Source of the DNA: Rhizobium sp. LC145
GTDB taxonomy: Bacteria; Pseudomonadota; Alphaproteobacteria; Rhizobiales; Rhizobiaceae
Assembly (NCBI RefSeq): GCF_001005825.1
Contig: NZ_LBHV01000002.1
Span: 310,001-374,000 of the forward strand
Length of the DNA: 64,000 nt
Reading direction: 5' to 3'
Shown here piece after piece: positions 15,991 through 62,287 of this stretch. Positions within the stretch are counted from its first letter, which is position 1. Each line of letters starts with the position of its first letter. The notes under the pieces were generated by a model. It had not been told where the DNA came from. It saw only the letters and a list, made by a program, of their open reading frames with translations, and made no database searches. Made by a program: the position numbers and the translations under genes.

Positions 15991-16022
15991 GTCTCGGCCA
16001 ACAAAGAACAAGGGGAACGATC

Positions 16023-17858
<1,836 letters not shown>

Positions 17859-40898: not shown

Positions 40899-40974
40899 TG
40901 TTCCTCCCTTTTCATGAACATGACCGCAGCCTTCGAGACGACGGCATTCCTTCAGTTTCTCCCCGCGGCCGCTC

Positions 40975-41800: not shown

Positions 41801-42859
41801 TTATTCCGTTATGATCGCGATGCCGCGGTTCCTGAGTCCGATCGCCACCTGCGTGCCCGGCGCGAGCGGCCGCTCCACGGAGTGGTCGACGATGAAAAGC
41901 CTGCCGTCGTCCGTTTCCGCTTCGTATTCGATATGATCGCCGAGATAGGCCGCATGGCTGATGCGGCCGGCGAATGCGGCGCTTTCGGCGGGTTCGACAG
42001 TGATCGAATTGGGGCGCACCGCGAGCTTGCCGCGGCCGGGCCTTGCCCCGCGCGAAGGCACCTTGTGGTTCAAGCCGGCGATGCGGATCGTCGCCTCTGC
42101 GCCATCCACGTCCAGGATCTCGCAGGGCACCACATTGGCCTCGCCGATGAAGTCGGCGATGAAGGCCGAGGCCGGCGCCTCATAGAGATCCCTCGGCCCG
42201 CCTTGCTGTGCGATATTGCCGTCCTTCATCACGACGATGTGGTCGGAGACGGCAAGAGCTTCGTCCTGGTCATGCGTGACGTAGACGGCCGTGAACTGCA
42301 GGCGCTGCTGCAATTCACGGATTTCCGTGCGCACACGGCGGCGCAATCGGGCATCGAGATTGGAGAGCGGCTCGTCCAGTAGAAGGACCTGCGGCTCGAG
42401 CACGAGCGCGCGGGCGACGGCGACGCGCTGCTGCTGACCGCCGGAAAGTTCGGAGGGCAGCCGCCCGCCCATGCCCGCGAGCCCCACCAGTTCCAGGCCA
42501 TGCTCGGCCTTCTGCCTTGCTTGCCTGCGGCCGAGGCCGGAGGATTCCAGCCCATAGGCGACGTTTTCCAGCGAGTTCATGTGTGGGAAAAGGGCATAGG
42601 ATTGGAAGACCATCGAGACATCCCGCTCGTTAGCCGGCAGCATGGTCACGTCCTTGCCGCCGATGAAGATACGGCCGGATGTCGGATGCTCCAGGCCCGC
42701 GAGCATGCGCAGGGTCGTCGTCTTTCCGCAGCCGGAGGGCCCGAGCAGCGTTACCAGCGTGCCGGGTTCCACCGTCAATGAAAGATCGTGAATGGCAGTG
42801 AACGCGCCGAACATCTTGCGGACGTTCTGAAAAACGACGGAGCCGGGCTTCTCGATCAT
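41801..42859 (-). CDS. ABC transporter ATPase, AfuC/FbpC type
   Basis: 352-aa ATPase with Walker A GPSGCGKTT, signature LSGGQQQRVAVARAL, Walker [13 protein letters not shown] and a C-terminal TOBE-type domain (from about residue 245). The FNVRKMFG-like N-terminus (VVFQNVRKMFGAFTAIHDLSL) is of the Fe(III)/hexose-phosphate group. Its ATG overlaps the permease stop (ATGA). It energises the fused permease encoded upstream. Confidence 0.88.
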   Translation of the reverse strand: MIEKPGSVVFQNVRKMFGAFTAIHDLSLTVEPGTLVTLLGPSGCGKTTTLRMLAGLEHPTSGRIFIGGKDVTMLPANERDVSMVFQSYALFPHMNSLENVAYGLESSGLGRRQARQKAEHGLELVGLAGMGGRLPSELSGGQQQRVAVARALVLEPQVLLLDEPLSNLDARLRRRVRTEIRELQQRLQFTAVYVTHDQDEALAVSDHIVVMKDGNIAQQGGPRDLYEAPASAFIADFIGEANVVPCEILDVDGAEATIRIAGLNHKVPSRGARPGRGKLAVRPNSITVEPAESAAFAGRISHAAYLGDHIEYEAETDDGRLFIVDHSVERPLAPGTQVAIGLRNRGIAIITE

Positions 42860-45087
42860 GCGGCTTTCTCCTGCGTGAGTGCGGGCGCGTTGGGGCGGGC
42901 AAGGCCGGCGACGCGGTTCTCGCGCCTCAATCGACGTTCGCCGACCAGAAGCTGGAAGCCGGCTATGACCGCGATCATCACGACGATCAGCATGGAGGAA
43001 TAGGCGATCGCCACCCCGTATTCGCCGTTTTCGACCAGCCCGACAATATAGGAGGTGGCCATGTTGTACTGGGCGCTGACGAGGAAGACGACCGCGCTGA
43101 CCGAGGTGATGGCACGCACGAAGGAATAGACGAGCGCTGCCGTGATGGCTGGCCTGAGCAAGGGCATGATGATCTTTCGGATCGTCCGGAAGCTCGTCGC
43201 CTTGAGGGTCATGGAGGCCTCGTCGAGAGACCGGTCGAGCTGGCTCATCGCCGCGATCCCGCCGCGTACCCCGACCGGCATGTTGCGGAAGACGAAGCAG
43301 GCGACAAGAATGAGCGCCGTGCCCGTCATTTCGAGCGGCGGCAGATTGAAGGCCATGATATAACTGATGCCGATGACCGTTCCTGGAATAGCGAAGCTCA
43401 TCATCAGCGCGAACTCGAAAAGTTCGCGGCCGGCAAAGCGTTGCCTTACGATGATGTAGGCTGTCGCAAGCCCGACCGCCGCCGTCAGCGGTGCTGCGAT
43501 CAGCGCGATCTTCATCGTGGTCCAGAAGGAGTTCCAGGCGACGCCGGTCCATACGAGAGCACCGTCGCGCACTGTCACCGAAAAGGCGCGGGCGTAGTGG
43601 TCGATGGTGAGCGTGTTGTCGAGGCCCCAGGTCTTCACGAACCCGCCGACCAGGATCATGCCGTAGACCACCAGCGTGAAGATCATCCAGGGGATTACCA
43701 CCGCATGGACTGCGACGGAGAGCGGGCGAGGCAGCGCAATATTAGCGCCGCTGTCGCCCTTTCCGGTAACCGTTGCAAAGTTCTTGCCTGCCAGCCAGAG
43801 CCTCTGCGCCAGGAAGGCCGAAAGCGTGAACCCGAGCAGGATCATGGCAAGTACGGCTGCCCGCGCGGGGTCGTTCTGCGATCCGACGACGGCGAAGAAT
43901 ATCTCGGTCGAAAGGACGCCATGGCTGCCGCCGAGCACCAGCGGATTGCCGAAATCGGCCATGCTCTCGATGAAGCCGATCAGGAAGGCATTGGCCAGGC
44001 CCGGCTTCATCAAGGGCAGGGAAACGCGCCAGAAGGTGCGCCAGCGGTTCGCCCTCAGCGTCTGCGAGGCTTCCTCCATGGATGGGCTGACACCTTCCAC
44101 CACCCCGATCAGAACCAGAAAGGAAATCGGCGTGAAGGAAAGCACCTGGGCGATCCAGATGCCGGTGAGGCCGTAGAGCCAGCGGCTCGGTTCGATGCCG
44201 AAGAAGCCGGAAAGCCCCTGGGTGACGATACCCGCGCGCCCGAACAGCAGTGTCAGCGCAAGGCCGATGACGAAGGGCGGCGTGATGATCGGCAGAATGG
44301 TCAGCAGGCGCAGACCCTTCTTGAAGGGAAAGTGCGTGCGGGTGGCGACGAGCGCGAATGCAAGGCCGAGCAGGGTGGAGGCCGACGCCGTCATGATCGC
44401 AAGCCAAAGCGTGCGCCATGCAATACCGCAACGCGTCCCCCCGGCAAGACAATCGAGGCTCCAGATCGACGGGTCGAGGAAATTGCGCGTGAAGCCCGAG
44501 AAGTTCACCGAGCCGTCGAAATCCTGAAAGGCGGCGATAAACATGCTGGCGATCGGATAGAAAACGAACACGGTGACGAGGAAGATCAGAAGCGAGATGG
44601 TCGCGGTGACGAAAGCATCCCCCTTCATGACGCCGCGCTCGGCAAGGCCGAAGGACAGGATCAGCACGAATGTCACCGCCAGAAGGACAGCGCCTGCTCC
44701 CATCGATGGCTGTCCATCCCTCAAAGGTCCGAAGATCGTTTCGCTGATGCTCCAGTTCCATCCCGTCAGGCCGATCGCAAGGCCTTGAAGGGCAAGAAAG
44801 CCGATGCCGACCGCGCCGGCTGAGACGAGCAGCCTGCTGCGCCGTTCGGGATCGGTCACGAAACGCGCCACCGCCGCCAGCACTACTGCAAAGAGGGCCG
44901 CAAGCAGCCACCAGCGGCCTTGCCCGAAGATTTGCGCCACCGCCGGGACCGCGGCGGCATCGGTCAGGAATTCCGCAATCCAGGAAAAGGAGAAAAAGCC
45001 CCGCTCTATCCTATACCACGGCAGCAGGATCATCGCTGCGGCACCGAGAGCCAAAGCGAAATCGAGTCTGCGATTGCGGTTGGACAT
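42856..45087 (-). CDS. Fused ABC transporter permease, AfuB type
   Basis: 743-aa inner-membrane protein formed by two permease halves in one chain. Each half has a coupling motif: EEASQTLRANRWRTFWRVSLPL in the first and LDEASMTLKATSFRTIRKIIMPLL in the second. This double permease is typical of Fe(III)- and AfuB hexose-phosphate-type systems. I prefer the ATG at 45087 (GAGG eight bases ahead); an upstream ATG at 45120 would have its ribosome site buried in the preceding hairpin. Confidence 0.88.
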   Translation of the reverse strand: MSNRNRRLDFALALGAAAMILLPWYRIERGFFSFSWIAEFLTDAAAVPAVAQIFGQGRWWLLAALFAVVLAAVARFVTDPERRSRLLVSAGAVGIGFLALQGLAIGLTGWNWSISETIFGPLRDGQPSMGAGAVLLAVTFVLILSFGLAERGVMKGDAFVTATISLLIFLVTVFVFYPIASMFIAAFQDFDGSVNFSGFTRNFLDPSIWSLDCLAGGTRCGIAWRTLWLAIMTASASTLLGLAFALVATRTHFPFKKGLRLLTILPIITPPFVIGLALTLLFGRAGIVTQGLSGFFGIEPSRWLYGLTGIWIAQVLSFTPISFLVLIGVVEGVSPSMEEASQTLRANRWRTFWRVSLPLMKPGLANAFLIGFIESMADFGNPLVLGGSHGVLSTEIFFAVVGSQNDPARAAVLAMILLGFTLSAFLAQRLWLAGKNFATVTGKGDSGANIALPRPLSVAVHAVVIPWMIFTLVVYGMILVGGFVKTWGLDNTLTIDHYARAFSVTVRDGALVWTGVAWNSFWTTMKIALIAAPLTAAVGLATAYIIVRQRFAGRELFEFALMMSFAIPGTVIGISYIMAFNLPPLEMTGTALILVACFVFRNMPVGVRGGIAAMSQLDRSLDEASMTLKATSFRTIRKIIMPLLRPAITAALVYSFVRAITSVSAVVFLVSAQYNMATSYIVGLVENGEYGVAIAYSSMLIVVMIAVIAGFQLLVGERRLRRENRVAGLARPNAPALTQEKAA

Positions 45088-45127
45088 GGCGGCTGCGACC
45101 TCGACGGAGCTGAATTGCATCAGGTTT

Positions 45128-47458: not shown

Positions 47459-48580
47459 CTACTCAGTCTTCTTGATAGCCGGCAGGTTCAGGGCATAGCG
47501 CGTGTGCCTGCGTTCGCCGGTCCGCGTTAACGCACCCTTTTGAACCAAGTCATGAAGATCGCGGGTCGCTGTCGCCCGGGAGGTACGCGTGATGGAAATG
47601 TAATTCTCAGCGCTCAAGCCGCCCTTGAACCCTGTGGGGCCTTCACGGAAGATGCGGGCGACAACCTTTTCCTGTCGCTCGTTGAATTGGCCGCGGAATC
47701 GGTCATGGAACTTTGCCTTCTCGATATAAAAGGCAATTCGCTTGATGGTCGTTTGCTGCGCCTTCAGGATGGTCTCGGCAAAGTAGACCAGCCAATCGGT
47801 GATATCGAGCGTCCGCTGGTGCCGTTCGAGTTGATCGTAGTAGGCTTTTCGATCCCGCTCTATCGTATAGGCAAGCGCGATCAAGCTGGGTTGTCCGATA
47901 TTCTGCGCAAGGGATTTTTCGGCAAGGGCGCGGCCAATTCTGCCATTCCCGTCCTCAAATGGGTGGATGCTTTCGAAATATAGATGGCCTATGCCGGCGC
48001 GTGTCAGTGGCGGCAGGGGGAGCGCCCCACCCGGTGATGATTTATTGAACCACTCGACATAGGCCGTCATTTCTTCAGGCACTTGTCTTGATGGTGGAGC
48101 TTCAAAATGGATGATAGGCTTGTCGTGGCGGCCGGAGACAATCTGCATGGCATCATCATGAGCCCGGTATCCGCCGATAGTTCCGATATGGCGGTTTCCT
48201 GCCATCAGCATGTTGTGCCAGTGAAACAGGGTTTGGTGATTGAGCGGAATGGCCCAGGTGTCATAGACGCCAACCATCATTTCAGCGATCCCGCGTTCCT
48301 GCGGTCGCACCGGTCGACTATCGGCGTCAAGGCCAAACTGCCTTCGCAAGGAAGATTGGACGCTCAATCGATCGAGCATCTCGCCTTCGATTTGCGACGT
48401 TTTTACCGCCTCTTCGCTCAAAAGTTCGATGCGTAGCAGATCGCGTTCATCATCGCTGACATGCCGAACAGCACCGATCACTTCCCCTGAGACTAGGAGG
48501 AACCGGTTCTCAAAGTGTTCCAAAGCGGCCGCGTCATAGCTGAATCGCGGCCAGGCTTCCTGTGTCCAATTCCATGTCAT
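47459..48580 (-). CDS. Fic family AMP-transferase with N-terminal self-inhibition motif
   Basis: 373-aa Fic protein. The catalytic motif HPFEDGNGRIGR is complete (His206 to Arg217), so AMPylation is expected. An inhibitory helix motif [S/T]xxxE[G/N] is present as TSQIEG (Thr61 to Gly66), which identifies a class II Fic whose Glu65 blocks ATP positioning. The N-terminus fits DUF4172-type Fic proteins. The last 75 residues (VVARIFREGPTGFKGGLSAENYISITRTSRATATRDLHDLVQKG) form a winged-helix-like domain. No antitoxin gene is adjacent. It sits alone between unrelated operons. Confidence 0.9.
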   Translation of the reverse strand: MTWNWTQEAWPRFSYDAAALEHFENRFLLVSGEVIGAVRHVSDDERDLLRIELLSEEAVKTSQIEGEMLDRLSVQSSLRRQFGLDADSRPVRPQERGIAEMMVGVYDTWAIPLNHQTLFHWHNMLMAGNRHIGTIGGYRAHDDAMQIVSGRHDKPIIHFEAPPSRQVPEEMTAYVEWFNKSSPGGALPLPPLTRAGIGHLYFESIHPFEDGNGRIGRALAEKSLAQNIGQPSLIALAYTIERDRKAYYDQLERHQRTLDITDWLVYFAETILKAQQTTIKRIAFYIEKAKFHDRFRGQFNERQEKVVARIFREGPTGFKGGLSAENYISITRTSRATATRDLHDLVQKGALTRTGERRHTRYALNLPAIKKTE

Positions 48581-48795: not shown

Positions 48796-50073
48796 TTACT
48801 TGGTGGCAAGCGCTTCGTTGATCTTGGCGACATCCGCTTCGAGGTTCTTGTAGGTCTCCTCGAGGCTGAGCTCGCCGACGATCAGCTGGCTCATGCGCTG
48901 CACGATCTGCTGGTAAACGGCAGTGCCGCCCTTCATGCGTTCGAATTCCCGCGCGGCCTGAGGCACGTTCTTTCTGTTGTCGAGAAATACGGCCATGGAA
49001 GCCTTGGCGTCCTCGTTGGAGATTTTGTATTGCGGGTCGCTGATATCCGCGCCCGTGAGGATGACATAGGTCTCGGCGATCTCACGCTGGACTTTTTCCG
49101 AGCCGAGGAACTCGATAAACTGGGCGACCGCTTCGGGGTGTTCCGTGCGCTTGAAGCCGACGATCGCAGTGGCGCCGGGCATCGCATAGCAGCCCGCGTC
49201 GGCGCAGGGAGCATTGATGGCCGTCCATTCGAAGGCATCTCCGATTTTCTTCTGGAACGGGTTCACCATCCAGTTGCCGGCAAGATAGGTCACGACATTG
49301 CCGTTGACGAATTCGTCGCCCATATTCTTGTATTGCGAGCCGCCGGCCGCTCCCCACATCTCCTTGGGGAAACTGCCGTCCTGCGTCCAGGCGTAGAGGT
49401 CTGCGATGTACTTGCGGGCCGCTTCATCGGGAAAATTGAACTTTCCGTCCTTGACGTAAGTGGAGCCGTAGGAATAGGCGCCGCCCGAAAAGCGATGACC
49501 TGAGCGGTCCATCGTGAAGGGTATCTGCACGCCGGTTGCCTTGGCGACGCGCGCGGAAGCTTCGACGATCTCCTTCAGCGTAGCGTTCGGTCTCGGCAAC
49601 GGTTCGCCCGCCTGCTCGAACAACGTCTTGTTGATGAAAGGCAGGTTGAGCGTCTGTGAGGCGACGTAGCCGTTGATCGACTGTGGATCGTTCACGCCCG
49701 GCAGGCGAAGCTGATCGAGGCTGGCGCCGTGCAGCTCGGTATAGGCCTCCGGATCCTTCATGTAGCGGCGCATATCGAGGTAGTATGGCGCGAGCTGCCA
49801 ATCGGTGATCTTGGCGAGATCGGGGCCCTTGCCTGCGGCCAACTGAACCGGCAACTGCTTTGCCACGGCGTCATAGCCCGAGGACACGAAGTTGACCTTG
49901 ATGTCCGGATGCGAGGCCTCGAATTCCTTACTCAGGGCGGCCATGTGCTCGACATAGCTCTGGTCGTCATCCGTGAAGAGAAAGGTGATGGTCTTGGTTT
50001 GCGCCAATGCGGCGTTTGAAAGGGAAATCGCTGCGAAAACGAACGCACTGATCCCCGTAAGAAGTTTCTGCAT
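48796..50073 (-). CDS. Oligosaccharide ABC transporter substrate-binding protein
   Basis: 425-aa SBP_bac_1 protein. The signal peptide (MQKLLTGISAFVFAAISLSNAALA) is followed by KTITFLFTDDDQSYVEHMAALSKEFEASHPDIKVNFV. Other family segments are GKGPDLAKITDW, LPFINKTLFEQAGEPLPRPN and FVNGNVVTYLAGNWMVNPFQ. The ATG at 50073 is chosen because GGGAGG lies six bases ahead of it; an ATG two codons earlier is too close. It is divergent from the GH105/GH28 operon, which encodes the matching permeases and ATPase, and probably binds a pectin-derived oligosaccharide. Confidence 0.9.
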   Translation of the reverse strand: MQKLLTGISAFVFAAISLSNAALAQTKTITFLFTDDDQSYVEHMAALSKEFEASHPDIKVNFVSSGYDAVAKQLPVQLAAGKGPDLAKITDWQLAPYYLDMRRYMKDPEAYTELHGASLDQLRLPGVNDPQSINGYVASQTLNLPFINKTLFEQAGEPLPRPNATLKEIVEASARVAKATGVQIPFTMDRSGHRFSGGAYSYGSTYVKDGKFNFPDEAARKYIADLYAWTQDGSFPKEMWGAAGGSQYKNMGDEFVNGNVVTYLAGNWMVNPFQKKIGDAFEWTAINAPCADAGCYAMPGATAIVGFKRTEHPEAVAQFIEFLGSEKVQREIAETYVILTGADISDPQYKISNEDAKASMAVFLDNRKNVPQAAREFERMKGGTAVYQQIVQRMSQLIVGELSLEETYKNLEADVAKINEALATK

Positions 50074-50269
50074 TTTCATCCTCCCAATGAAAATATTTTC
50101 ATAAATCGAGATCGCCTCCATCGGCGCCATTCTCGATTTATCTCTTTTTGATACTTGACAACGTAAACGTCAAGCTGTTTCGTCTCTAAAAACGAGGAGC
50201 AGTCTTCATGTGAAAATTGTTCCTGAATTGTAGTGAAAATATTTTCATAGATCGACGGGAGGCGATCCA
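50074..50269. promoter_or_regulatory. Divergent promoter region of the pectin module with paired palindromes
   Basis: Two copies of the 14-bp perfect palindrome TGAAAATATTTTCA, at 50088-50101 and 50234-50247, each followed by ATAAATCGA or ATAGATCGA. Each lies just upstream of one of the two divergent genes, 146 bases apart. Also present are an 11-bp inverted repeat (ATAAATCGAGA / TCTCGATTTAT, 50101-50111 / 50131-50141) and a 6-bp one (CTTGAC / GTCAAG, 50154-50174). These are candidate sites for the LacI regulator at the end of the module. Confidence 0.7.
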
Positions 50270-52789
50270 ATGCAGCAAGCGGCTTGCGCCGACAGCGATC
50301 CGGCAGATCCGACCTCTACCGTCCGCCCTGGCGAGACGATCACGGCCTGGGTGGTTTCCGATCTCACCGAGGAATATTTCCCGGGCGTGCCCGCGTTGGC
50401 GGAGGATCGCGTGAATTATCGCTTCATCAACGGTTTCGTGGATGTCGGCGATCTGCCGTGCCGCAAGGCATTCTGGGCAAAGATGGTGGGGCGTGACATC
50501 TCCCCCCGAACGGATTGGCAGTCTTCCTTCCTTAATCTTCCCGGCTCAAATCGGCGCGTCGAGTTCACGAGCTTCTGGCATGTGCCCACGCATGTCAGCC
50601 GCTGGCTACGGGGAACGTTCCGCAGCGAGCGGGAACGCGAGCTTCTTCTGCGGCTGAAAACCTGCGGCGGGATGCGCATCTGGGTAAATGGCTTGGAACA
50701 AGCGCGATTCGAACCTTTCCTGCGGAATGTCGAAAGCGAAACGGATATTCGTTTGAGGCTGAAGGCTGGCGACAACGAGATCCTCGTATTGACTGAGGAT
50801 CTCGCGGAACGCGATACGATCTGGTTCTTCGAGTTGGAACTGGCGGACCCGGAGCCTCTGACGGTTGTCCTGCCGGTTGCCCTGGACCGGGAAGAGGTGA
50901 GGCAGCTGGAACTGTTGGTGCGGGGCATCCGTCCGGCCCTCGATGTTTTCGTGAACCAGCCGCTGGAAATCGTCTTCGACAGTCCGCCTGGCTCCGACCT
51001 GCCCGTCCACGTCGAGGTCTATAGTCACGGCCATGACCGGGCTATCCTCGCCAGTGCCGATCTGAAACTCCATGCGACCGAAACACGACTGAGGGCAGAC
51101 GATATCGCGGGGATTCCTGACGGATATCACGGCATCAGGCTCAAGCTCGGTTCCGGTGCCGGAACCGTTACGCGCAACATAGACGCGGCTTTTCTGAGCG
51201 AACTCACGCCTTCCGCCCCGGCATTGCTTTTCGAGCGGAAACGGGAAGCTCTGGCTTTCAGCGCCCGCTTCGGCGCCGAGCGCATCGGGCGCGTCCTGGC
51301 CATGGCTGCGCGCGGTGAAATCGATCATGAGGTCATGGAGCGCATCGTCGACGCGACCTTGCGGTCCATCGACAAGCGCGAGGATTGTTCCGATTTCGTC
51401 ATGGTGCCGCTTCTTTGGCTCCTTGGAGACTATGGGCATTTGCTGCCGCCCGTCATCGTGGAGCGGATCCGTGCCTCCATTCTCGGCTACCGCTATTGGG
51501 TGGACGAACCCGGCAACGATGTCATGTGGTTCTGGAGCGAAAACCATGCCCTGTGCTTCCACACAAGCCAACTGATCGCAGGCAGGCTCCTGCCCGAGGA
51601 ATCGTTTTCGGCTTCCGGCAGGAAAGGGCGCGAACAGGCTGAACTCGCGACGCAGCGGCTGCATCGCTGGTTCGACAGCGTCGAAGCGCATGGTCTGGCA
51701 GAATGGAATTCCGCTGCCTACTATCCGATTGATTTCATAGGTCTCTTTGCTCTGGAGCGGTGGGCTGAACCGGCGATCGCGGCAAGAGCCAGGCACCAAC
51801 TCGACTGCATTTTCCGGATGGTCGCGCTGCATACGCTGGCGGGAGTGCCGGCGGGGTCGCAAGGGCGCGCCTATGACAAGGAATTGCGAGCAGGCCCTCT
51901 GACGGAGCTTGCTCCTTTCGCAAGGGTGGCCTTCGGCGACGGGTGGCTGAACGGTGGGGTGGCTTCGCTGCCGATGTTCTGCGCCGGCACCTATGAGCCG
52001 CCCTCCGACCTTATTGAATTGGCCCAATTGACGCCGGGACGGGCAATCGAGGCGCGCTATACGCAAGGCCTCGAAGAGGCCCGGCTCGTGCTGTTCAAGA
52101 CCGAGGCCTCGCAACTTGCCACGGTGGTCGATCACAAGACGGGCGGGAAGGGGCACCAGCAACACGTGCTCGACATTCGCCTGGCTGGCCATCCGATGGC
52201 AAGACTCTGGATCAACCATCCCGGCGAGGATGACCCTTGGGGCACGCAGCGCCCCTCCTATTGGGCCGGTAACGGCATTCTGCCGCGCGTCATGCAATAT
52301 CGCGACGTGGCCTTGCTCATTGCCGATACGAAAGATGCCCGCAACGCCTGGACCCATGCCTATATCGGCCGTGACGGTCTCGATGAAGTCATCCTTGAAG
52401 GCGGCTGGCTCGTGACCTGGTCCGGGCGTGGCTTTGCAGCCCTCCACGCGACGAACGGGCTCGAGCTCGTCGCTCAAGGCGCAACGGCCGGGCGGGAGAT
52501 ACGCTCGCACGGAACGCTGACCGGCTGGGCGGCTATCGTCGGCGCCGGAGACGACGCTGCCTTCCAGCGCTTCATCGAGCGGATCCGGGCAACGCGCGTC
52601 ACTTTCGAACCCGAAAGCCGAATGCTTTCCCTCACTCCGCCCGGACGGGCAACGCTGAAACTTGCCTATTCCGGGGTCTTCACCGTGGGCGATGAACCCA
52701 AGCCTTTCCTTCATGACCGGCCGGTGCCGAGCCTGACCTATGACAGCCTGGAGGCAGATGGCTCAACCGACCATCCCTTCTATGCGTAA
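50270..52789 (+). CDS. Unrecognised 839-aa protein, probable alpha/alpha-toroid carbohydrate enzyme
   Basis: I cannot assign this to a named family. There is no signal peptide, so it is cytoplasmic. Residues about 95-195 look like a galactose-binding-type beta-sandwich (GGMRIWVNG, then IRLRLKAGDNEILVLTEDL). Residues about 330-560 are helical and resemble six-hairpin glycosidase or lyase toroids; conserved-looking motifs are WFWSENHALCFHTSQLIAG (Glu424, His426) and GLAEWNSAAYYPIDFIGL (Glu478, Asn480, Tyr484, Tyr485). Residues about 580-839 are beta-rich. It begins the operon with GH105, GH28 and ABC genes, so a role on a pectin or rhamnogalacturonan fragment is inferred. The start follows CGGGAGG. 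Confidence 0.75.
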   Translation: MQQAACADSDPADPTSTVRPGETITAWVVSDLTEEYFPGVPALAEDRVNYRFINGFVDVGDLPCRKAFWAKMVGRDISPRTDWQSSFLNLPGSNRRVEFTSFWHVPTHVSRWLRGTFRSERERELLLRLKTCGGMRIWVNGLEQARFEPFLRNVESETDIRLRLKAGDNEILVLTEDLAERDTIWFFELELADPEPLTVVLPVALDREEVRQLELLVRGIRPALDVFVNQPLEIVFDSPPGSDLPVHVEVYSHGHDRAILASADLKLHATETRLRADDIAGIPDGYHGIRLKLGSGAGTVTRNIDAAFLSELTPSAPALLFERKREALAFSARFGAERIGRVLAMAARGEIDHEVMERIVDATLRSIDKREDCSDFVMVPLLWLLGDYGHLLPPVIVERIRASILGYRYWVDEPGNDVMWFWSENHALCFHTSQLIAGRLLPEESFSASGRKGREQAELATQRLHRWFDSVEAHGLAEWNSAAYYPIDFIGLFALERWAEPAIAARARHQLDCIFRMVALHTLAGVPAGSQGRAYDKELRAGPLTELAPFARVAFGDGWLNGGVASLPMFCAGTYEPPSDLIELAQLTPGRAIEARYTQGLEEARLVLFKTEASQLATVVDHKTGGKGHQQHVLDIRLAGHPMARLWINHPGEDDPWGTQRPSYWAGNGILPRVMQYRDVALLIADTKDARNAWTHAYIGRDGLDEVILEGGWLVTWSGRGFAALHATNGLELVAQGATAGREIRSHGTLTGWAAIVGAGDDAAFQRFIERIRATRVTFEPESRMLSLTPPGRATLKLAYSGVFTVGDEPKPFLHDRPVPSLTYDSLEADGSTDHPFYA

Positions 52790-52804: not shown

Positions 52805-53899
52805 ATGGATGCGATGACCCTCACCAAGCCGGCCTTGCAGGACACGATCGACCGGGTAGCGGCGGCATTCAGTCGCCTCAAGGGCATCAAGGAAGGTCTT
52901 GCCGGCACGGATGCAGGCAGGGGTATCCAGTTCGATGAATGGGACTGGGAGGTCGGGGTTGGGCTTTACGGCTTCCTGCGGCGGGCGCTTGCCGCCGGTG
53001 ATCGTCGCGCGCTCGACGATCTCGTCGATTGGTATAGTTGGCAGATAAAAAGAGGCCTGCCGCCGCGACAGATCAACAGCACGGCTCCCATGCTGCCGCT
53101 CGCCATCCTGATCGAGCATGTCGACCGGCCGGATTTCCGCGCGCTCGTGGAGGATTGGGCGGATTGGCTTGTCCGCAAACTTCCCAAGACCGAGGATGGC
53201 GGCTTCCAGCACGTCGTCAAGGAACGGCTGAACGAGGGCGAGCTTTGGGATGACACGCTGTTCATGGCCACCCTTTTCCTGGCCCGCGCCGGCGTCGTAT
53301 GCGGAAGGCGCGACTGGATCGACGAGGCGGTCTACCAGTTCATGGTGCATACGCGCTATCTTTCCGATCCGGTGACCGGCCTGTGGTATCATGGCTGGAC
53401 CTTCATCGGCCGGCACAATTTCGCCAAGGCCTTCTGGGCACGTGGCAACGCCTGGATCACCGTTGCCATTCCCGAACTCTTTGAGCTCGTTCCGGATCTC
53501 GACGAGAAGGACAAGCGTTTCCTCTCCAATGTCCTGGCAAGTCAGGTCCGCTCGCTGAAGGACTTCCAGCGGCTTGACGGCATGTTCCACACGCTTGTCG
53601 ATGATTTGACCTCGCCCGTGGAGACCTCGGCCACAGCCGGTATCGCATACGGTATCCTGCGTGGCGTCCAGGCGGGCATTCTCGATGCCGCAGATCGTGA
53701 GAATGCCGAGCGGGCGCTCTCCGCAGTGCTTGCCCATATCGATGAAGAAGGGGTCGTGGAGGGCGTCTCGGACGGTACCCCCATGGGGCATGATCTTGAA
53801 TTCTATCGCCGCATCCCGAACCTGCCGACACCCTACGGGCAAGCGCTGACCATGCTGCTGCTCACCGAGGTATTGCTGGAAAAGGAGGGAAAGGTATGA
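52805..53899 (+). CDS. Unsaturated rhamnogalacturonyl hydrolase, GH105 family
   Basis: 364-aa (alpha/alpha)6 hydrolase. The catalytic Asp region is ELWDDTLFMATLFLA (Asp149/Asp150), matching the general acid/base position of YteR-type enzymes. AFWARGNAWITVAIPEL and PVETSATAGIAYGI are family segments. It removes the unsaturated uronic acid left on rhamnogalacturonan fragments by lyases. No signal peptide, so it works after import. It lies 15 bases after the unrecognised 839-aa gene and overlaps the GH28 start by 4 bases (ATGA). Confidence 0.88.
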   Translation: MDAMTLTKPALQDTIDRVAAAFSRLKGIKEGLAGTDAGRGIQFDEWDWEVGVGLYGFLRRALAAGDRRALDDLVDWYSWQIKRGLPPRQINSTAPMLPLAILIEHVDRPDFRALVEDWADWLVRKLPKTEDGGFQHVVKERLNEGELWDDTLFMATLFLARAGVVCGRRDWIDEAVYQFMVHTRYLSDPVTGLWYHGWTFIGRHNFAKAFWARGNAWITVAIPELFELVPDLDEKDKRFLSNVLASQVRSLKDFQRLDGMFHTLVDDLTSPVETSATAGIAYGILRGVQAGILDAADRENAERALSAVLAHIDEEGVVEGVSDGTPMGHDLEFYRRIPNLPTPYGQALTMLLLTEVLLEKEGKV

Positions 53900-55227
53900 C
53901 GCGGAGGATTTCCCATTCCATTCCGGCCCGGCAGGAAGAGGCGACCTTGCATATACAGGCAGCCATAGACGAGGTCTCAGCGCTCGGGGGTGGACGGGTC
54001 GAGTTATGCCCCGGCATTCACGTCATCCGGGGGCTTCGGTTGAAATCTGGCGTTGAACTTCACTTGCCCGAGGGGGCGGTCCTGCGGCCCGTTCCTGATT
54101 ACGAGGCTTATTCCGCAACGACGGTTTCGGTAATTGCCGAAAAATCGGACCGCGGGATCATCACTGCAAGGAATGAGGTGGATATTGCCCTGACCGGGCA
54201 TGGACGGATCGAGGCGGGCGGGGAGGGGTTCATCGCCGGCGACGACCAGGCAATGGGCACCTACATCCCTGCCGAATTTCGTCCGCGGGTCCTCGTGTTG
54301 GAGGCTTGTAAGGACGTTCGCCTGGAGGATATCGAAGTCATCGACTCCCCAATGTGGACCTTGCATTTCGTCAATTGCGAGGATGTGCATGTCTCCCGCG
54401 TGACGGTCTCCAACAATCGCCGCCTCCCCAATACCGATGGCATCGTGCTCGATGCCTGCCGGGGCGCAGTCATCGAGGATTGCGTAGTCTCGACCGCGGA
54501 CGACGGCATATGCCTCAAAACGAGCATGGCGCCGAACGGCGGCGCCATAGGCAGTTGCGAGAACATTGTCGTTCGCCGATGCACGATAGAAAGCCAAAGC
54601 TGCGGACTGAAGATCGGCACGGAATCACACGGCGATTTCACCAATGTCGTTTTCGAGGATTGCCGCATCCGCAATTCCAACCGCGGACTTGGATTGTTCT
54701 CACGCGACGGTGGGCGCATTTCGAACATCCGCTTTTCGCGGATCGACGTGGACTGCCACGAAACGCTCGACGGCTTCTGGGGATCGGGCGAAGCATTGAC
54801 CGTGACCGTGGTCGACCGCGTGCCGGAACGTCGGGCCGGTGCGGTGGAGAACCTGATCGTCGAGGATTTGAGCGGGCGCATGGAAGGGGCGATCGTGCTC
54901 GTCGCGACCTCTGCCGCCGGTCTCCAAAATGTCCGGCTGTCGCGCCTGAGGCTCCGGCAAGCGGCCGGCCAATTGGGTACAGCCTCGTGCTATGATCTGA
55001 GACCGACCCATGCGGACATCGCGCCGAGCCTGGATGCGGTCGGCCGCGCGAACGCCTGGACGAGGGGAGCCGATGGAAAGGTGATCGGGATTGTCGATTA
55101 TCCGGATGGCCTACCCGCCATTTTCACCAAGGGCATGAAGGACCTTTGGATGGACGAGGTGCATATTGAAAGGCCTGAGCCGCTGCCTGAGAGGTGGAAT
55201 GCAAACGTCCTTCATCAAGCGAATTGA
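53896..55227 (+). CDS. GH28 family polygalacturonase-type glycoside hydrolase
   Basis: 443-aa right-handed beta-helix enzyme. GH28 motifs are NTDGI (residues 179-183, catalytic Asp181), ADDGICLK (Asp202/Asp203) and GLKIGTESHG (238-246). The Gly-His-Gly motif of classic polygalacturonases is in the variant GTESHG form, as in exo-acting or rhamnogalacturonan-type GH28. Without a signal peptide, it is cytoplasmic and should trim imported oligogalacturonides or rhamnogalacturonan pieces. Its start overlaps the GH105 stop. Confidence 0.88.
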   Translation: MTRRISHSIPARQEEATLHIQAAIDEVSALGGGRVELCPGIHVIRGLRLKSGVELHLPEGAVLRPVPDYEAYSATTVSVIAEKSDRGIITARNEVDIALTGHGRIEAGGEGFIAGDDQAMGTYIPAEFRPRVLVLEACKDVRLEDIEVIDSPMWTLHFVNCEDVHVSRVTVSNNRRLPNTDGIVLDACRGAVIEDCVVSTADDGICLKTSMAPNGGAIGSCENIVVRRCTIESQSCGLKIGTESHGDFTNVVFEDCRIRNSNRGLGLFSRDGGRISNIRFSRIDVDCHETLDGFWGSGEALTVTVVDRVPERRAGAVENLIVEDLSGRMEGAIVLVATSAAGLQNVRLSRLRLRQAAGQLGTASCYDLRPTHADIAPSLDAVGRANAWTRGADGKVIGIVDYPDGLPAIFTKGMKDLWMDEVHIERPEPLPERWNANVLHQAN

Positions 55228-55245: not shown

Positions 55246-56367
55246 ATGGGAGAACTGAAACTTACCGGTGTGAACAAGGCGTTCGGCGCGCTGACCGTGC
55301 TGCACGACATCAACCTGACCATAGAGGACGGAAAGTTCGTCGTCTTCGTCGGGCCGTCGGGTTGCGGCAAGTCTACGCTTTTGAGGATCATCGCCGGGCT
55401 GGAGGACATTTCCGCCGGCGGCATTGAGATCGGCGGCCGCGATGTCGGCCGGTTTTCGCCCGCCGAGCGCAGGATTGCCATGGTCTTCCAGTCCTATGCG
55501 CTCTATCCGCATATGAGCGTGCGCAAGAACCTGGCCTTCGGCCTGGAAAACCTCAAATTCAAGCGCAGCGAGATCGAAGCGCGGATTCAGGAAGCGGCGC
55601 GCATGCTGGCCATCGAGCCTTATCTGGACCGGAAGCCGAGGCAGCTTTCGGGCGGCCAGCGGCAGCGCGTTGCCATCGGCCGCGCGATCGTGCGCAATCC
55701 AGATATTTTCCTCTTCGACGAGCCGCTCTCCAATCTCGATGCGGCCCTGCGCGTCCAGACACGTGCGGAAATCACCAGACTGCACCGCGAGCTCAAGACC
55801 ACGATGATCTATGTGACCCACGACCAGGTCGAGGCCATGACGATGGCCGACCAGATCGTGGTGCTGAACAGTGGCCGGATCGAGCAGGTGGGAACACCGC
55901 TCGAACTCTTCGACAATCCCCGCAACCTGTTCGTGGCCGGCTTTTTGGGCTCGCCCCGAATGAACATGCTGAAGGGAACGGTGACCGCCATCGAAGACGG
56001 TTCTGTGGCGATCGACGTGGGCTACAGGATCGCCTTGCCTGCAAAACTCGATCCCGCCGGCGCCAGGATAGGTCAGCCCGTGCTGGCCGGCATACGTCCG
56101 GCTCACTTCACGTTGTCTCAGGAGGAAGGGCTGCCGTTCATCGTTCAATATCACGAGAGCCTCGGCACCGAGACCTATGTCTATGGAACCCTCGACGGCC
56201 AGAGCGAGCAGATCATCATCCATCAGGCCGGTCATTTTGCTCCGAAGGCAGGGGGGCGCTTGTTCCTCATGCCCATGCCGGAGCGCTTGCACGTTTTCGA
56301 CCCCGACACGGGTCTTGCCCTGCCGCGGGCCGTCGAGGAGCCAAGGAGGGTTCATGAGCACGCCTAG
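55246..56367 (+). CDS. ABC transporter ATPase of the pectin module
   Basis: 373-aa UgpC/MsmK-type ATPase. Walker [10 protein letters not shown], signature [14 protein letters not shown], Walker [13 protein letters not shown] and a C-terminal regulatory domain (about residues 240-373) are all present. It starts 18 bases after GH28 and overlaps the following permease gene by 14 bases. It completes the transporter whose binding protein is encoded divergently at 48796-50073. Confidence 0.9.
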   Translation: MGELKLTGVNKAFGALTVLHDINLTIEDGKFVVFVGPSGCGKSTLLRIIAGLEDISAGGIEIGGRDVGRFSPAERRIAMVFQSYALYPHMSVRKNLAFGLENLKFKRSEIEARIQEAARMLAIEPYLDRKPRQLSGGQRQRVAIGRAIVRNPDIFLFDEPLSNLDAALRVQTRAEITRLHRELKTTMIYVTHDQVEAMTMADQIVVLNSGRIEQVGTPLELFDNPRNLFVAGFLGSPRMNMLKGTVTAIEDGSVAIDVGYRIALPAKLDPAGARIGQPVLAGIRPAHFTLSQEEGLPFIVQYHESLGTETYVYGTLDGQSEQIIIHQAGHFAPKAGGRLFLMPMPERLHVFDPDTGLALPRAVEEPRRVHEHA

Positions 56368-57349
56368 GATAGCGACCCTGGCCGACCGGACGCTCGATTT
56401 CGTCATGCGGTTGGTCGAGGCGCCGATCAACGGGTTTGAGTGGCTCTTTGGCAGGAAGCGGATGCCTTATCTGTTCCTGGCGCCCAATCTCGTGCTTTTC
56501 GGCATATTCACATTCCTGCCGATTGCGATTGCGGTCGGTTATGCCTTCACGGGGGGAACGGAACTCTTCGTTGCCGACCGGCCGTTCGTCGGTTTCGACA
56601 ATTTCCGCCAACTCTTAGCCTGCGAGGACTACTCGAGCCCCGGTAGCTGCCGCGAATCCCTGTTCTGGACAGCGATATGGAACACCCTGTGGTTCGTCGG
56701 CTTCAACGTGGCGGCGACGCTTCTCGTGGCACTCGTCACCGCGCTGATCCTCAATCGGGCGATTGCGGCGTGCGGCTTCTTCCGCGCCGTCTTCTTCTAT
56801 CCCGTTCTCTTGTCGCCCGTAGTCATCGGCCTCATCTGGAAATGGTTCCTGGATCGCAACGGCCTTCTCAACGCTTTCCTGCAAATGCTTGGCGTTCCAC
56901 CGGAAATCTTCTTGCTGGATGTAGGCTGGTCGCGGTTCTTCGTGGTCGTGGTTTCGGTCTGGTTCCATATGGGGTTCTATACATTGATCCTTCTCGCCGG
57001 CCTTCAGGCCATCCCGAAGGATCTCTACGAGGCTGCCGCGATCGACGCGGCCTCTCCGAGACGGACGCTGCTGCGCATTACGCTGCCGCTTCTCGGCCCG
57101 AACCTTCTGGTCGTGCTCATCCTGCTGATGATCCGATCGGTGCAGATTTTCGACGAGGCCTGGGTGTTGACGAATGGCGGCGGTCCCGGCACGGCCAATA
57201 GTTTCATCGTCCAGTATATCTATCAGATGGCCTTCGGCAGCGATCTGCGTCTGTTCGGACTGGCTTCGGCCGCCTCGGTGCTGATGGGTGTCGTCCTGCT
57301 CATACTGACGCTCATACAGTTGCGGCTTGGCCGCAGGATGGAGTCGTGA
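56354..57349 (+). CDS. ABC transporter permease, MalF type, of the pectin module
   Basis: 331-aa permease with an N-terminal cytoplasmic segment of about 35 residues, then six helices (first PYLFLAPNLVLFGIFTFLPIAI). A periplasmic loop carries a Cys pair (LACEDYSSPGSCRES), which may form a disulfide. The coupling loop is LYEAAAIDAASPRRTLLRITLPLLGP. The start follows AAGGAGGG. It is located inside the last 14 bases of the ATPase gene. Confidence 0.9.
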   Translation: MSTPRIATLADRTLDFVMRLVEAPINGFEWLFGRKRMPYLFLAPNLVLFGIFTFLPIAIAVGYAFTGGTELFVADRPFVGFDNFRQLLACEDYSSPGSCRESLFWTAIWNTLWFVGFNVAATLLVALVTALILNRAIAACGFFRAVFFYPVLLSPVVIGLIWKWFLDRNGLLNAFLQMLGVPPEIFLLDVGWSRFFVVVVSVWFHMGFYTLILLAGLQAIPKDLYEAAAIDAASPRRTLLRITLPLLGPNLLVVLILLMIRSVQIFDEAWVLTNGGGPGTANSFIVQYIYQMAFGSDLRLFGLASAASVLMGVVLLILTLIQLRLGRRMES

Positions 57350-57353
57350 TTCC

Positions 57354-58412
57354 ATGTCGACCAGCCTCGATCCCGTCGCTTTCCTGACCCGCACGCGCCG
57401 GCCCGGACGTGTCGGCGTGACCGACATCCTCTCTTGGTTGTGGCTGATTGGTGGGACGCTTGCGGTCCTTATCCCGGTTGCCTGGGCGGGGCTTTCCTCG
57501 CTGAAGCCGGAAGCGGAGATCACGCGTTTTCCACCGACGCTGCTGCCGAGAGCAGCCGTCCAGAAAACCGTCACCGGCTTTGAAAACCCGCTCAGCCTCT
57601 GGAAGGTCACAGTCGACGGAGAGACCCGCGAGATGGCGATGGTCCGTCGCATCGGCCTCAAGGCCCAGATGGTCGATCCGAATGAGCCCGGCAAACCGGT
57701 CAGCATCGACGTGAAGGATATTTCGCCGGTCCAGCAGCTTACCGCCGCGACGGAGAACTACACCGATCCTTTGACGAAGTTCGACTTCCTGACCTTTCTC
57801 AAGAACTCGGTTTTCGTCACTTTCGTCGCAACCATCCTGACGCTCATCGTCAATGCACTGGCTGCCTTTGCTCTGTCGAAATATCGCTTCCGCGGCGACA
57901 AGGCGATTTTCGTGCTTATCATTTCGACGCTGATGATCCCGCTGACGGTGGTCATGGTGCCGGCCTATCTCGTGGTCGTCGGCGTGGGGCTGGTGGACAA
58001 TCTGTGGGGTATCATCATTCCGACGATCGCCTCTCCCACCGGCGTTTTCCTGCTGCGCCAATACATGCTGACCATCCCGGACGAGTTGATAGAAGCAGCG
58101 CGCGTCGATGCGGCGAGTGAATTCCGCATCTTCTGGCGCATCATTCTGCCATTGACCGCGCCGGCGCTCGCGGTTCTCGCGATCTTCTCGATCCTGTGGC
58201 GCTGGAACGACTTCCTCTGGCCGCTGATCGTGCTGAGCAGCCGCGAAAACTTCACGCTGCAGGTCGGGCTCAATGCCTTCCAAGGCGAGTTTTCGGTCCA
58301 GTGGCATTATATCCTGGCGATGACCTTCCTGAGCCTTCTGCCGGTCACCATCGTTTTCTTCTTCCTCCAGAAGTACATAACCACCGGCATTGCCGGGACG
58401 GGCATGAAGTAA
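57354..58412 (+). CDS. ABC transporter permease, MalG type, with long periplasmic insertion
   Basis: 352-aa permease, about 70 residues longer than usual. The extra length is between helix one (LWLIGGTLAVLIPVAWAGLSSL) and helix two, residues about 45-150, and contains a periplasmic domain with FPPTLLPRAAVQKTVTGFENPLSLWKVTVDG. The rest is typical, with ELIEAARVDAASEFRIFWRIILPLTAPALAVL as the coupling loop and a QKYITTGIAGTGMK end. The insertion may contact the binding protein. It lies 4 bases after the partner permease. Confidence 0.9.
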   Translation: MSTSLDPVAFLTRTRRPGRVGVTDILSWLWLIGGTLAVLIPVAWAGLSSLKPEAEITRFPPTLLPRAAVQKTVTGFENPLSLWKVTVDGETREMAMVRRIGLKAQMVDPNEPGKPVSIDVKDISPVQQLTAATENYTDPLTKFDFLTFLKNSVFVTFVATILTLIVNALAAFALSKYRFRGDKAIFVLIISTLMIPLTVVMVPAYLVVVGVGLVDNLWGIIIPTIASPTGVFLLRQYMLTIPDELIEAARVDAASEFRIFWRIILPLTAPALAVLAIFSILWRWNDFLWPLIVLSSRENFTLQVGLNAFQGEFSVQWHYILAMTFLSLLPVTIVFFFLQKYITTGIAGTGMK

Positions 58413-58414
58413 GT

Positions 58415-59455
58415 TCAGTCGCGGGGCGGTGCCACGCTGCCCCGCAGGACAAGCCTGCAGCCGAGCTCCAGCCGATGCGCCGGCCGCAGCGGATCATTGG
58501 CGATCAGCCGCTGTTCGAGCAGACCGAGAGCGGCCGCTCCGAGATGCTCGACCGGCAGGTGTATCGTCGACAGCGGCGGTGAACTGAATTCACCCCGTAC
58601 GATATCGTCGAAGCCGAGCACCGAGATGTCCTCGGGCACCCGCAGTCCAGCGACGGCAAGTGCCTTGAGGCAGCCGAGCGCCAGATTGTCCGCAGCGCAA
58701 AAGATTGCCGTTGCACCCTTCAATATTGGATCCGTAGCCAACAGCTCCCGGATCGCTCGCTCCCCCTGCACAGGCTCGAAACCGTCTGCTTCCACGACCA
58801 TGTCCACCGGCAGGGAAAGGCCTGCAGCCAGATAGGCATCCGCATAACCGTCATATCGCCGGCGGATGGTGGTTCGGCCTTTCCAGGTAAGATGCAGGAT
58901 GCGGCGGTGCCCGAGCGCCATAAGATGTTCTATGCCCTGGCGGGCACCGAAGCGGTTTTCACCGGTGACCGTGTCGACAAGCATCGAGGGATCCTCGCCG
59001 TTGAGGATCACCAACGGCGTCCTTGCCTGCGCAAGCGCGCGAATAAGCTCGGGCCGGTCATCGTTGAGGACAACGATGCCATCGACATTTTCAGCCTGAG
59101 CGATCCGCCGGACCTCCGCGGGATCGATCCGGTTGCCGGCACTGACAAAGGGAATGATCCTGATGCTGCGGCGCTCGCATTCCTGCCTGAGGCCGTTCAG
59201 CATCGTCCAACTGACCAGGTTGAGATCGCTATGCGGGGCCGCCTCACTAGTGATCGCAAGCAGTATGGTGCGAAGGGTTGCAATGGTCGCGCGGCTTTTC
59301 CTGCGCTCCAGATAGCCCAGCCTTTGCGCGGAATTCAGGACGCGATCACGGACCTCGAGGGAAATTGGTGCGGTCCCGTTCAGGACATGGGAAGCGGTGC
59401 TGAGAGAGACGCCGGCATTTTGGGCAACCTCCCTTAATCCGATCTTTGCCTTCAC
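58415..59455 (-). CDS. LacI family regulator of the pectin module
   Basis: 346-aa LacI protein from the GTG at 59455. The HTH lies at about residues 5-50 (IGLREVAQNAGVSLSTASHVLNGTAPISLEVRDRVLNSAQRLGYL), with a sugar-binding-type effector domain (SVLGFDDIVRGEFSSPPLSTIHLPVEHLGAAAL). Possible starts are GTG 59455, GTG 59461 and ATG 59476; a GAGGGGG ribosome site favours 59455. It is convergent with the permease, 2 bases apart. It probably binds the palindromes in the divergent promoter about 8 kb away. Confidence 0.85.
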   Translation of the reverse strand: MKAKIGLREVAQNAGVSLSTASHVLNGTAPISLEVRDRVLNSAQRLGYLERRKSRATIATLRTILLAITSEAAPHSDLNLVSWTMLNGLRQECERRSIRIIPFVSAGNRIDPAEVRRIAQAENVDGIVVLNDDRPELIRALAQARTPLVILNGEDPSMLVDTVTGENRFGARQGIEHLMALGHRRILHLTWKGRTTIRRRYDGYADAYLAAGLSLPVDMVVEADGFEPVQGERAIRELLATDPILKGATAIFCAADNLALGCLKALAVAGLRVPEDISVLGFDDIVRGEFSSPPLSTIHLPVEHLGAAALGLLEQRLIANDPLRPAHRLELGCRLVLRGSVAPPRD

Positions 59456-59619
59456 ACGCACCCCCTCAGGACACATCGACGATTGCCGGCTGCATGGATG
59501 GCAGCGCGTAACTGTTCTAATGCGCGGCGAGATCGGATTGAAGTGGTTCGTTGGCTGACAATAGAGAATGTTGGCCGACAACGACAGACATGACCGACTT
59601 CTGCCCGCCAATCCTAGGA

Positions 59620-62261: not shown

Positions 62262-62287
62262 AAATAAAACTCCAGAGGAACAACGCC

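What the first reader, a model, noticed from the sequence alone, without database searches (positions are those of the whole stretch)
50270..52789. An unnamed 839-aa cytoplasmic protein leads a pectin / rhamnogalacturonan operon
Seen: a beta-sandwich-like N-terminal part, a central helical part with WFWSENHALCFHTSQLIAG and AEWNSAAYYPID motifs, and a beta-rich C-terminus, with no signal peptide. It is the first gene in an operon with GH105, GH28 and a sugar transporter. The motifs resemble those of six-hairpin glycosidase/lyase toroids, but I know of no characterised family with this exact layout. Inference: a new intracellular enzyme that removes a decoration or opens a backbone bond in imported rhamnogalacturonan fragments, with Glu424, His426, Glu478 and Tyr484/485 as candidate catalytic residues.
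Basis: partly seen in the sequence, partly recalled or inferred. Interest (0 to 1): 0.75.

Follow-up and report, generated by a model that had tools for sequence, protein, structure and literature searches.

The report
Unclassified intracellular pectin-fragment lyase family
A large protein of unknown function in a relative of root-nodule bacteria looks like a member of an unnamed family of enzymes that cut imported plant pectin fragments inside the cell, leaving the double-bonded sugar end that the enzyme encoded next door is built to remove.

Summary
The gene is real (839 aa, 50270-52789, +) and matches no Pfam, NCBIfam or PDB sequence family searched here. An AlphaFold2 model (mean pLDDT 85) shows a GH2-like jelly roll, a second beta domain, an (alpha/alpha)n toroid and a beta-sandwich. 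For toroid plus sandwich, 40 of the 41 long matches among the 50 shown are polysaccharide lyases; one is an epimerase. Asn425-His426, Tyr484 and His650 are kept in 120-121 of 121 family rows and repeat the order and spacing of the catalytic Asn/His-Tyr-His of those lyases. A GH105-type unsaturated-uronide hydrolase lies in the same locus in 90 of 95 cases, usually about 20 bp away, also where GH28 was not found; divergent relatives often sit with kduI/kduD. Two exact copies of a palindrome, conserved near 67 of 80 relatives, mark the divergent promoter. Best reading: a cytoplasmic oligosaccharide lyase making a delta-4,5-uronide (probably delta-GalA-Rha from rhamnogalacturonan I) for GH105. 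Activity, substrate and active-site geometry are untested, and the model is weakest around the proposed active site. Novelty: an unclassified family in a known lyase superfamily; CAZy could not be checked.

The parts
50270..52789 (+). 839-aa unclassified lyase-like protein
50324..50854 (+). N-terminal GH2-like jelly roll (residues 19-195)
   Evidence: VIA-align e.g. 3cmg Z 9.3, 118 residues, rmsd 2.8; 3fn9 Z 9.3, 123 residues, rmsd 3.0
50855..51196 (+). second beta domain (residues 196-309); with the jelly roll, absent in the shorter Haladaptatus relative
   Evidence: model strands; L036 alignment
51218..52024 (+). (alpha/alpha)n toroid (residues 317-585)
52046..52714 (+). C-terminal beta-sandwich (residues 593-815)
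51542..51547 (+). Asn425-His426, candidate carboxylate neutraliser and base
   Evidence: invariant in 121 of 121 rows, 62 of 62 after removing near-duplicates
51719..51721 (+). Tyr484, candidate catalytic acid
   Evidence: invariant in 121 of 121 rows, 62 of 62
52217..52219 (+). His650, candidate third catalytic residue
   Evidence: 120 of 121 rows (Gln in L018); less certain, see report
52805..53899 (+). GH105-type unsaturated uronyl hydrolase
   Evidence: Pfam Glyco_hydro_88 E 6e-98; nearest solved relatives 3qwt and 4xuv are named GH105
53896..55227 (+). GH28, no signal peptide by eye
   Evidence: (NCBIfam PglB 712 bits)
55246..56367 (+). UgpC-like ABC transporter ATPase
56369..57349 (+). 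sugar ABC permease (longest ORF starts 56177; start placed near 56369 by synteny)
57327..58412 (+). second sugar ABC permease, called by synteny only
58415..59611 (-). LacI-family regulator, candidate RhiR
48796..50130 (-). divergent ABC solute-binding protein (true start probably a later Met)
50088..50101 (.). operator-like palindrome TGAAAATATTTTCA, copy 1
50234..50247 (.). operator-like palindrome TGAAAATATTTTCA, copy 2

Best explanation
It is a cytoplasmic oligosaccharide lyase of an unclassified family in the (alpha/alpha)n toroid plus antiparallel beta-sandwich lyase superfamily. The ABC transporter imports uronate-containing pectin fragments, most likely rhamnogalacturonan-I oligosaccharides. 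Asn425 neutralises the carboxylate at subsite +1. His426, possibly with His650, abstracts the C5 proton. Tyr484 protonates the leaving glycosidic oxygen. The Rha-1,4-GalA bond breaks by beta-elimination and leaves a delta-4,5-unsaturated galacturonate end. The neighbouring GH105 removes that residue; KduI, KduD and the rhamnose pathway finish the products. Shown: gene, gene order, fold of the model, conservation, co-occurrence. Inferred: chemistry, residue roles, substrate, exo mode and location.
For: Toroid plus sandwich (residues 312-812 folded alone): the first eleven Foldseek hits are all toroid lyases, best 3a0o (PL15) E 4.6e-7. VIA-align: 8khw (PL35) Z 11.9, 394 residues, rmsd 4.8; Alg17c 4ok2 (PL17) Z 11.4, 420, 5.2; of the 50 rows shown, 41 align over 376 or more residues, 40 lyases and one epimerase. 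Full-length model: best Foldseek hit is exoheparinase 6ljl, E 5e-10. N425-H426, Y484, H650, R673 against Asn336-His337, Tyr390, His555, Arg579 of BIexoHep: H-to-Y 58 vs 53, Y-to-H 166 vs 165, H-to-R 23 vs 24. A GH105 hit covering half the query or more in 90 of 95 loci; within 8 kb, any length, in 91 of 95, gap 150 bp or less in 83. Only 3 GH88/105-family genes were found in the whole 5.88-Mb genome. KduI within 8 kb in 19 and KduD in 16 of 95; the four annotated clusters L032-L035 have both, and no polysaccharide lyase is annotated in the stretches shown. Rhamnose genes lie next to the cluster in Thioclava; the own genome has a protein 69% identical to Thioclava's RhaS and a KduI relative (48%).
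Against: No significant sequence link to PL15 by hhalign (Prob 0.3% and 1.1%) or to a PDB chain. Foldseek TM-scores are low: TMq 0.32-0.46 for the first eleven hits of the domain model, 0.24 with rmsd 24 for 6ljl and the full model. VIA Z 10-12 is under the value of about 13 below which the tool warns about helical arrangements. Toroid-only hydrolases reach similar Z (GH105 4xuv 10.7). The proposed active-site stretches are the least certain parts: 10-residue pLDDT 54 at 411-420, 69 at 481-490, 59 at 531-540, 52-59 at 651-670; in the domain model pLDDT is under 50 at residues 419-424, 477-484 (with Tyr484), 532-544 and 653-668. His650's equivalence rests on order and spacing; hhalign placed the PL15 histidine stretch near residues 622-630 instead. 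Four of 95 loci lack GH105 by both rules (L036, L111, L113, L135; L113 ends about 540 bp after the gene), and L137 has only a partial hit of 87-124 aa behind a NagB-like gene. NCBIfam calls the GH28 a polygalacturonase, which points to homogalacturonan. No activity data.
Confidence: 0.6

Rival explanations
1. Same kind of lyase, but its substrate is not RG-I: oligogalacturonides in the rhizobial clade, or other uronate glycans in the divergent branches.
For: The GH28 partner scores 712 bits to NCBIfam polygalacturonase PglB; PglB (Atu4560) is described as acting in polygalacturonic acid degradation (PMC6683767, one passage; that both names mean one protein is inferred). A 47%-identical relative sits beside a NagB-like gene (L137). 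The Haladaptatus relative sits among Gfo/Idh genes with a heparinase II/III-like gene about 8 kb away. Pseudosulfitobacter from seawater carries it with kduI/kduD.
Against: The constant partner is GH105, whose solved relatives include YteR; rhamnose genes adjoin in Thioclava; a LacI-controlled 'rhi' cluster for rhamnogalacturonides is predicted in Rhizobiales and Erwinia (PMC3870299, passages), though I did not prove it is this locus.
Confidence: 0.22
2. A glycoside hydrolase with a toroid fold that removes a saturated uronic acid or a side-chain sugar.
For: Toroid-only matches include GH105 and GH154 (VIA Z 9.4-10.7, 223-236 residues); GH146 enzymes appear lower in Foldseek (E about 1e-3, TMq 0.25). 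Invariant Glu424, Glu478, Asp412, Asp488 could serve as acids.
Against: Among the 50 VIA rows shown, the 41 that span toroid and sandwich are 40 lyases and the dermatan sulfate epimerase 6hzn. The invariant Asn-His/Tyr/His set fits beta-elimination. A hydrolase would explain the constant pairing with an unsaturated-uronide hydrolase less well.
Confidence: 0.12
3. A C5-epimerase or uronate dehydratase that works by the same proton abstraction without cleaving the chain.
For: Dermatan sulfate epimerase 6hzn scores Z 11.4, 435 residues, rmsd 5.4; a beta-D-glucuronate dehydratase 9o4u matches the toroid at Z 9.0.
Against: No epimerised sugar is expected in pectin catabolism (general knowledge). 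The epimerase ties with the lyases (Z within 1), so the fold alone does not choose.
Confidence: 0.06

Closest known systems
PL15 oligo-alginate lyase Atu3025 and exoheparinase BIexoHep (3a0o, 6lja/6ljl)
   Same: N-terminal beta part, toroid, beta-sandwich; His/Tyr/His order and spacing; lyases that act on oligosaccharide ends; Atu3025 is also from a Rhizobiaceae bacterium
   Different: No sequence match (Pfam DUF4962 and Hepar_II_III_C absent; hhalign Prob 0.3-1.1%). Sits with GH105 and pectin genes. The own genome has a separate Atu3025 relative (L140).
PL35 GAGases and PL17 oligo-alginate lyase Alg17c
   Same: Toroid plus sandwich; Asn/His and Tyr catalytic set (PMC12088678 Table 4, seen in part)
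   Different: No sequence match; extra GH2-like N-terminal domain here; their gene neighbourhoods were not examined
GH105 unsaturated rhamnogalacturonyl hydrolase (YteR/RhiN type)
   Same: Toroid fold; same operon; acts on the predicted product
   Different: No Glyco_hydro_88 match in this protein; it has a C-terminal sandwich that GH105 lacks (recalled)
Predicted RhiR/rhi rhamnogalacturonide cluster of Rhizobiales (PMC3870299)
   Same: LacI-family regulator, ABC transporter, rhamnogalacturonide hydrolases
   Different: The passages seen name no lyase of this family; identity with this locus not verified

Membership tests
PL15 | Matches Pfam DUF4962 / Hepar_II_III_C, as PL15 proteins do | tested here: not met
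   0 Pfam families at E<=1 for this protein; neither family among the four weak ones for the 13 members of A1; control L140 matches both
PL15 | Toroid plus antiparallel beta-sandwich fold | tested here: met
   3a0o is the best Foldseek hit of the domain model, E 4.6e-7, but TMq only 0.42
PL15 | Profile-level sequence homology | tested here: not met
   hhalign Prob 0.3% (A1) and 1.1% (A3) against a three-row PL15 alignment; the small alignment weakens the test
PL15 | His/Tyr/His active site in one cleft | tested here: inconclusive
   Order, spacing and invariance fit; no coordinates to measure distances, and low pLDDT there
PL35 / PL17 | Toroid plus antiparallel beta-sandwich fold | tested here: met
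   8khw Z 11.9, 394 residues, rmsd 4.8; 4ok2 Z 11.4, 420 residues, rmsd 5.2
PL35 / PL17 | Sequence similarity to solved members | tested here: not met
   No PDB chain at E<=10 by phmmer; two unrelated weak chains by profile, best E 0.036
Polysaccharide lyase (functional class) | Beta-elimination giving a delta-4,5-unsaturated uronide | not testable with these tools
   Needs purified enzyme
CAZy PL family of any number | Assignment in CAZy | not testable with these tools
   No CAZy library on hand; only Pfam, NCBIfam, PHROGs and PDB sequences were checked
GH105 / GH88 | Pfam Glyco_hydro_88 match | tested here: not met
rhi regulon (RhiR, Rhizobiales) | LacI-type palindromic operator at the promoter | tested here: inconclusive
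   Palindrome present and conserved near 67 of 80 relatives; the published RhiR motif is in a figure, and figures are not held

The most novel reading that the evidence does not exclude
A new polysaccharide lyase family, spread over Alphaproteobacteria, other Pseudomonadota, Bacillota and haloarchaea, that carries out rhamnogalacturonan-I backbone elimination inside the cytoplasm with a histidine base placed for anti-elimination, on a toroid scaffold whose solved relatives in the searches here act on alginate, glycosaminoglycans, xanthan or ulvan.
Probability: 0.4. Interest if true: 0.7.

Novelty: new variant of a known kind. Interest (0 to 1): 0.52.

Why it matters
If right, hundreds of related genes in legume symbionts, agrobacteria and other bacteria, called 'hypothetical' in the annotated records read here, get a testable job, and the missing step between imported pectin fragments and the GH105/Kdu pathway is filled. 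It would widen the substrate range of the toroid lyase fold to galacturonate backbones. The conserved palindrome gives a marker for the regulon.

Tried and rejected
Tried without result: Pfam, NCBIfam, PHROGs, phmmer and profile search of PDB sequences; viral contigs (23 pattern stretches, none a relative); hhalign to PL15. Paper searches: the listings showed no paper that is plainly about this protein or a matching new lyase family. I judged by listings, opened passages of only six papers, and did not open PMC9138961, which mentions Atu4559. Most subscription papers are not held.

Rejected: His622 as catalytic residue (82 of 121 rows); Tyr485 (Phe in 26, Leu in 1). PL26 exo-rhamnogalacturonan lyase was considered from memory; it was not among the rows shown by the structure searches, which excludes nothing. 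The NCBIfam label 'beta-galactosidase BglB' for the GH105 neighbour was set aside: Pfam and solved relatives say GH105.

Limits: 506 relatives were found in genome contigs but only the best 80 were kept, so counts lean to Rhizobiaceae and many loci are close kin. The 95 loci are those over 10 kb held; shorter loci were left out. GH28 was sought only with the window's own GH28 as query, so distant GH28 genes could be missed. In one search, 120 of 139 collected sequences were unique, and one of these (L001) is the window's own gene again, so the 121 rows hold 120 different proteins; 62 remain at 90% identity.

Full report
What is there. The ORF at 50270-52789 (+) encodes 839 aa behind a ribosome-binding-like sequence. 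The nearest named relatives are Neorhizobium (N. galegae 76% identity); the window is G000:C12:310001-374000. Gene order: this gene, GH105-type, GH28, UgpC-like ATPase, two permeases (the second by synteny), then a LacI regulator on the other strand; a solute-binding protein is divergent in front. R. etli CFN42 and R. johnstonii 3841 have the same order from the solute-binding protein to the second permease, with the gene called 'hypothetical protein' and a ROK regulator next.

Family. No Pfam hit at E<=1, no NCBIfam hit at E<=0.01, no PDB hit at E<=10 by phmmer. Relatives: 39 of 247 genomes of the family (one of them at only E 9e-4), 9 of 398 of the phylum at E<=1e-6, the own genome included, 200 plasmid records, 506 stretches in genome contigs of which 80 were kept. 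They include Rhodobacterales, Subdoligranulum (Bacillota) and Haladaptatus (archaea). Some genomes carry two or three copies of different branches.

Structure. AlphaFold2 on 34 aligned sequences: mean pLDDT 85.4, pTM 0.87. Residues 19-195 match GH2 jelly rolls (3cmg Z 9.3, 118 residues, rmsd 2.8). Residues 317-810 match lyases: 9o3q Z 11.0, 8khw 10.7, 4ojz 10.6. Foldseek's best full-length hit is the exoheparinase 6ljl at E 5e-10, though with TMq 0.24; the ranks below its sister entry 6lja are GH2 enzymes drawn by the N-terminus. Residues 312-812 alone (pLDDT 83.9): Foldseek ranks 1-11 are toroid lyases (TMq 0.32-0.46), rank 12 is an unrelated megabody complex and GH146 enzymes follow from rank 16. 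VIA-align shows 50 rows: 41 over 376 or more residues (40 lyases, one dermatan sulfate epimerase at Z 11.4) and nine toroid-only rows, among them GH105 at Z 10.7. Rows within 1 Z are ties. Family numbers of individual entries come from the papers cited, the entry titles or recall. Confidence is lowest where the proposed active site lies: pLDDT is under 50 at 477-484 and 653-668 in the domain model.

Residues. Over 121 rows (window plus 120 unique of 139 collected, one of them the window's gene again): N425, H426, Y484, E424, E478, D412, R533, Y535 and Q630 are in all; H650 is in 120; R673 in 119. At 90% identity 62 remain: N425, H426, Y484 in 62, H650 in 61. BIexoHep binds substrate with Asn336, His337, Tyr390, Ser554, His555, Arg579 among others; alanine at His337, Tyr390 or His555 almost abolishes activity (PMC7904915, passages). 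PL35 enzymes use Tyr and His as base/acid and Asn as neutraliser, and most lyases of the table seen in part are alike (PMC12088678, passages). In the PL15 lyase VBAly15A, His226 serves G-type substrates and Tyr280 can do both jobs (PMC11921355, passages). From general knowledge, galacturonate has H5 and O4 anti, like guluronate, so a separate histidine base fits a galacturonate substrate; this is inference. The own genome's PL15 protein L140 aligns end to end without gaps to Atu3025 3a0o, so its numbering can be read directly: His311 to Tyr365 is 54 there and 58 here, His311 to His531 is 220 and His426 to His650 is 224. The alternative for the third residue (around 622-632) is not excluded; G628 and Q630 are invariant, H622 is not.

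Context. A GH105 hit covering at least half the query is in the locus in 90 of 95. Within 8 kb, any length: 91 of 95, same strand 88, gap 150 bp or less in 83, median gap 20 bp. GH28 in 69 of 95; among the 26 without a GH28 hit, 22 keep a GH105 hit (L137 a partial one) and 11 have KduI. The four annotated clusters L032-L035 list GH88/105, kduI and kduD and no annotated polysaccharide lyase; unannotated ones were not sought. Because GH105 and KduI/KduD act on unsaturated uronides, a cytoplasmic enzyme that makes them is the missing step. The alternative that such ends arrive ready-made from outside remains open.

Regulation. TGAAAATATTTTCA occurs twice in the window with up to one mismatch allowed, both exact, at 50088-50101 and 50234-50247; none in 100 shuffles. 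In the 80 genome contigs relatives, a copy with at most 1 mismatch lies between 330 bp upstream and 30 bp into the match in 67, against 0 of 358 control stretches; the ones without it are mostly the more distant relatives. PMC3870299 (passages) predicts a LacI-type RhiR controlling a rhamnogalacturonide cluster in Rhizobiales and Erwinia; this locus is a candidate.

Verdict. A real, widespread, unclassified family that most likely works as a cytoplasmic oligosaccharide lyase. It works like PL15/PL17/PL35 enzymes but is not filed as a member of any of them, because sequence membership was tested and not met.

Noticed in passing
window 50088-50101 and 50234-50247: Two exact copies of the palindrome TGAAAATATTTTCA flank the divergent promoter; conserved near 67 of 80 relatives.
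   Followed up: partly
L186 9122-11847 (G000:C12 about 381-384 kb, just beyond the window): A second GH28 plus GH105-type pair beside ABC transporter-like genes lies about 18 kb downstream.
   Followed up: partly
window 60579-63277 and L186 1341-2252: TRAP transporter genes (large permease, DctP) followed by a DHDPS-family enzyme, possibly another sugar-acid catabolic unit.
   Followed up: no
window 42856-45120: A 754-aa ABC permease with two permease-domain matches in one chain; a solute-binding protein gene lies at 39588-41027.
   Followed up: no
window 47459-48580 (-): Fic-domain protein with DUF4172, next to the pectin operon.
   Followed up: no
L106 6724-7953, L111 6244-7959, L113 6661-7959: In part of the roughly 50%-identity branch an upstream ORF overlaps the lyase-like gene by 4 bp; the L111 one has a HAD-hydrolase domain (E 5e-17), the L106 one only a sub-threshold trace, L113 was not scanned.
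   Followed up: partly
L137 7515-11243: A 47%-identical relative is followed by a Glucosamine_iso (NagB-like) gene and a GH88-like stretch of only 87-124 aa, hinting at a different substrate or a decayed GH105.
   Followed up: partly
L037 10532-17021 (Subdoligranulum): GH105-type hits at 10634-11599 and 15939-17000 and a 910-aa MGH1-like glycoside hydrolase sit next to the Bacillota relative.
   Followed up: no
window 52805-53899: NCBIfam labels this GH105-type protein 'beta-galactosidase BglB', at odds with Pfam and solved relatives.
   Followed up: partly
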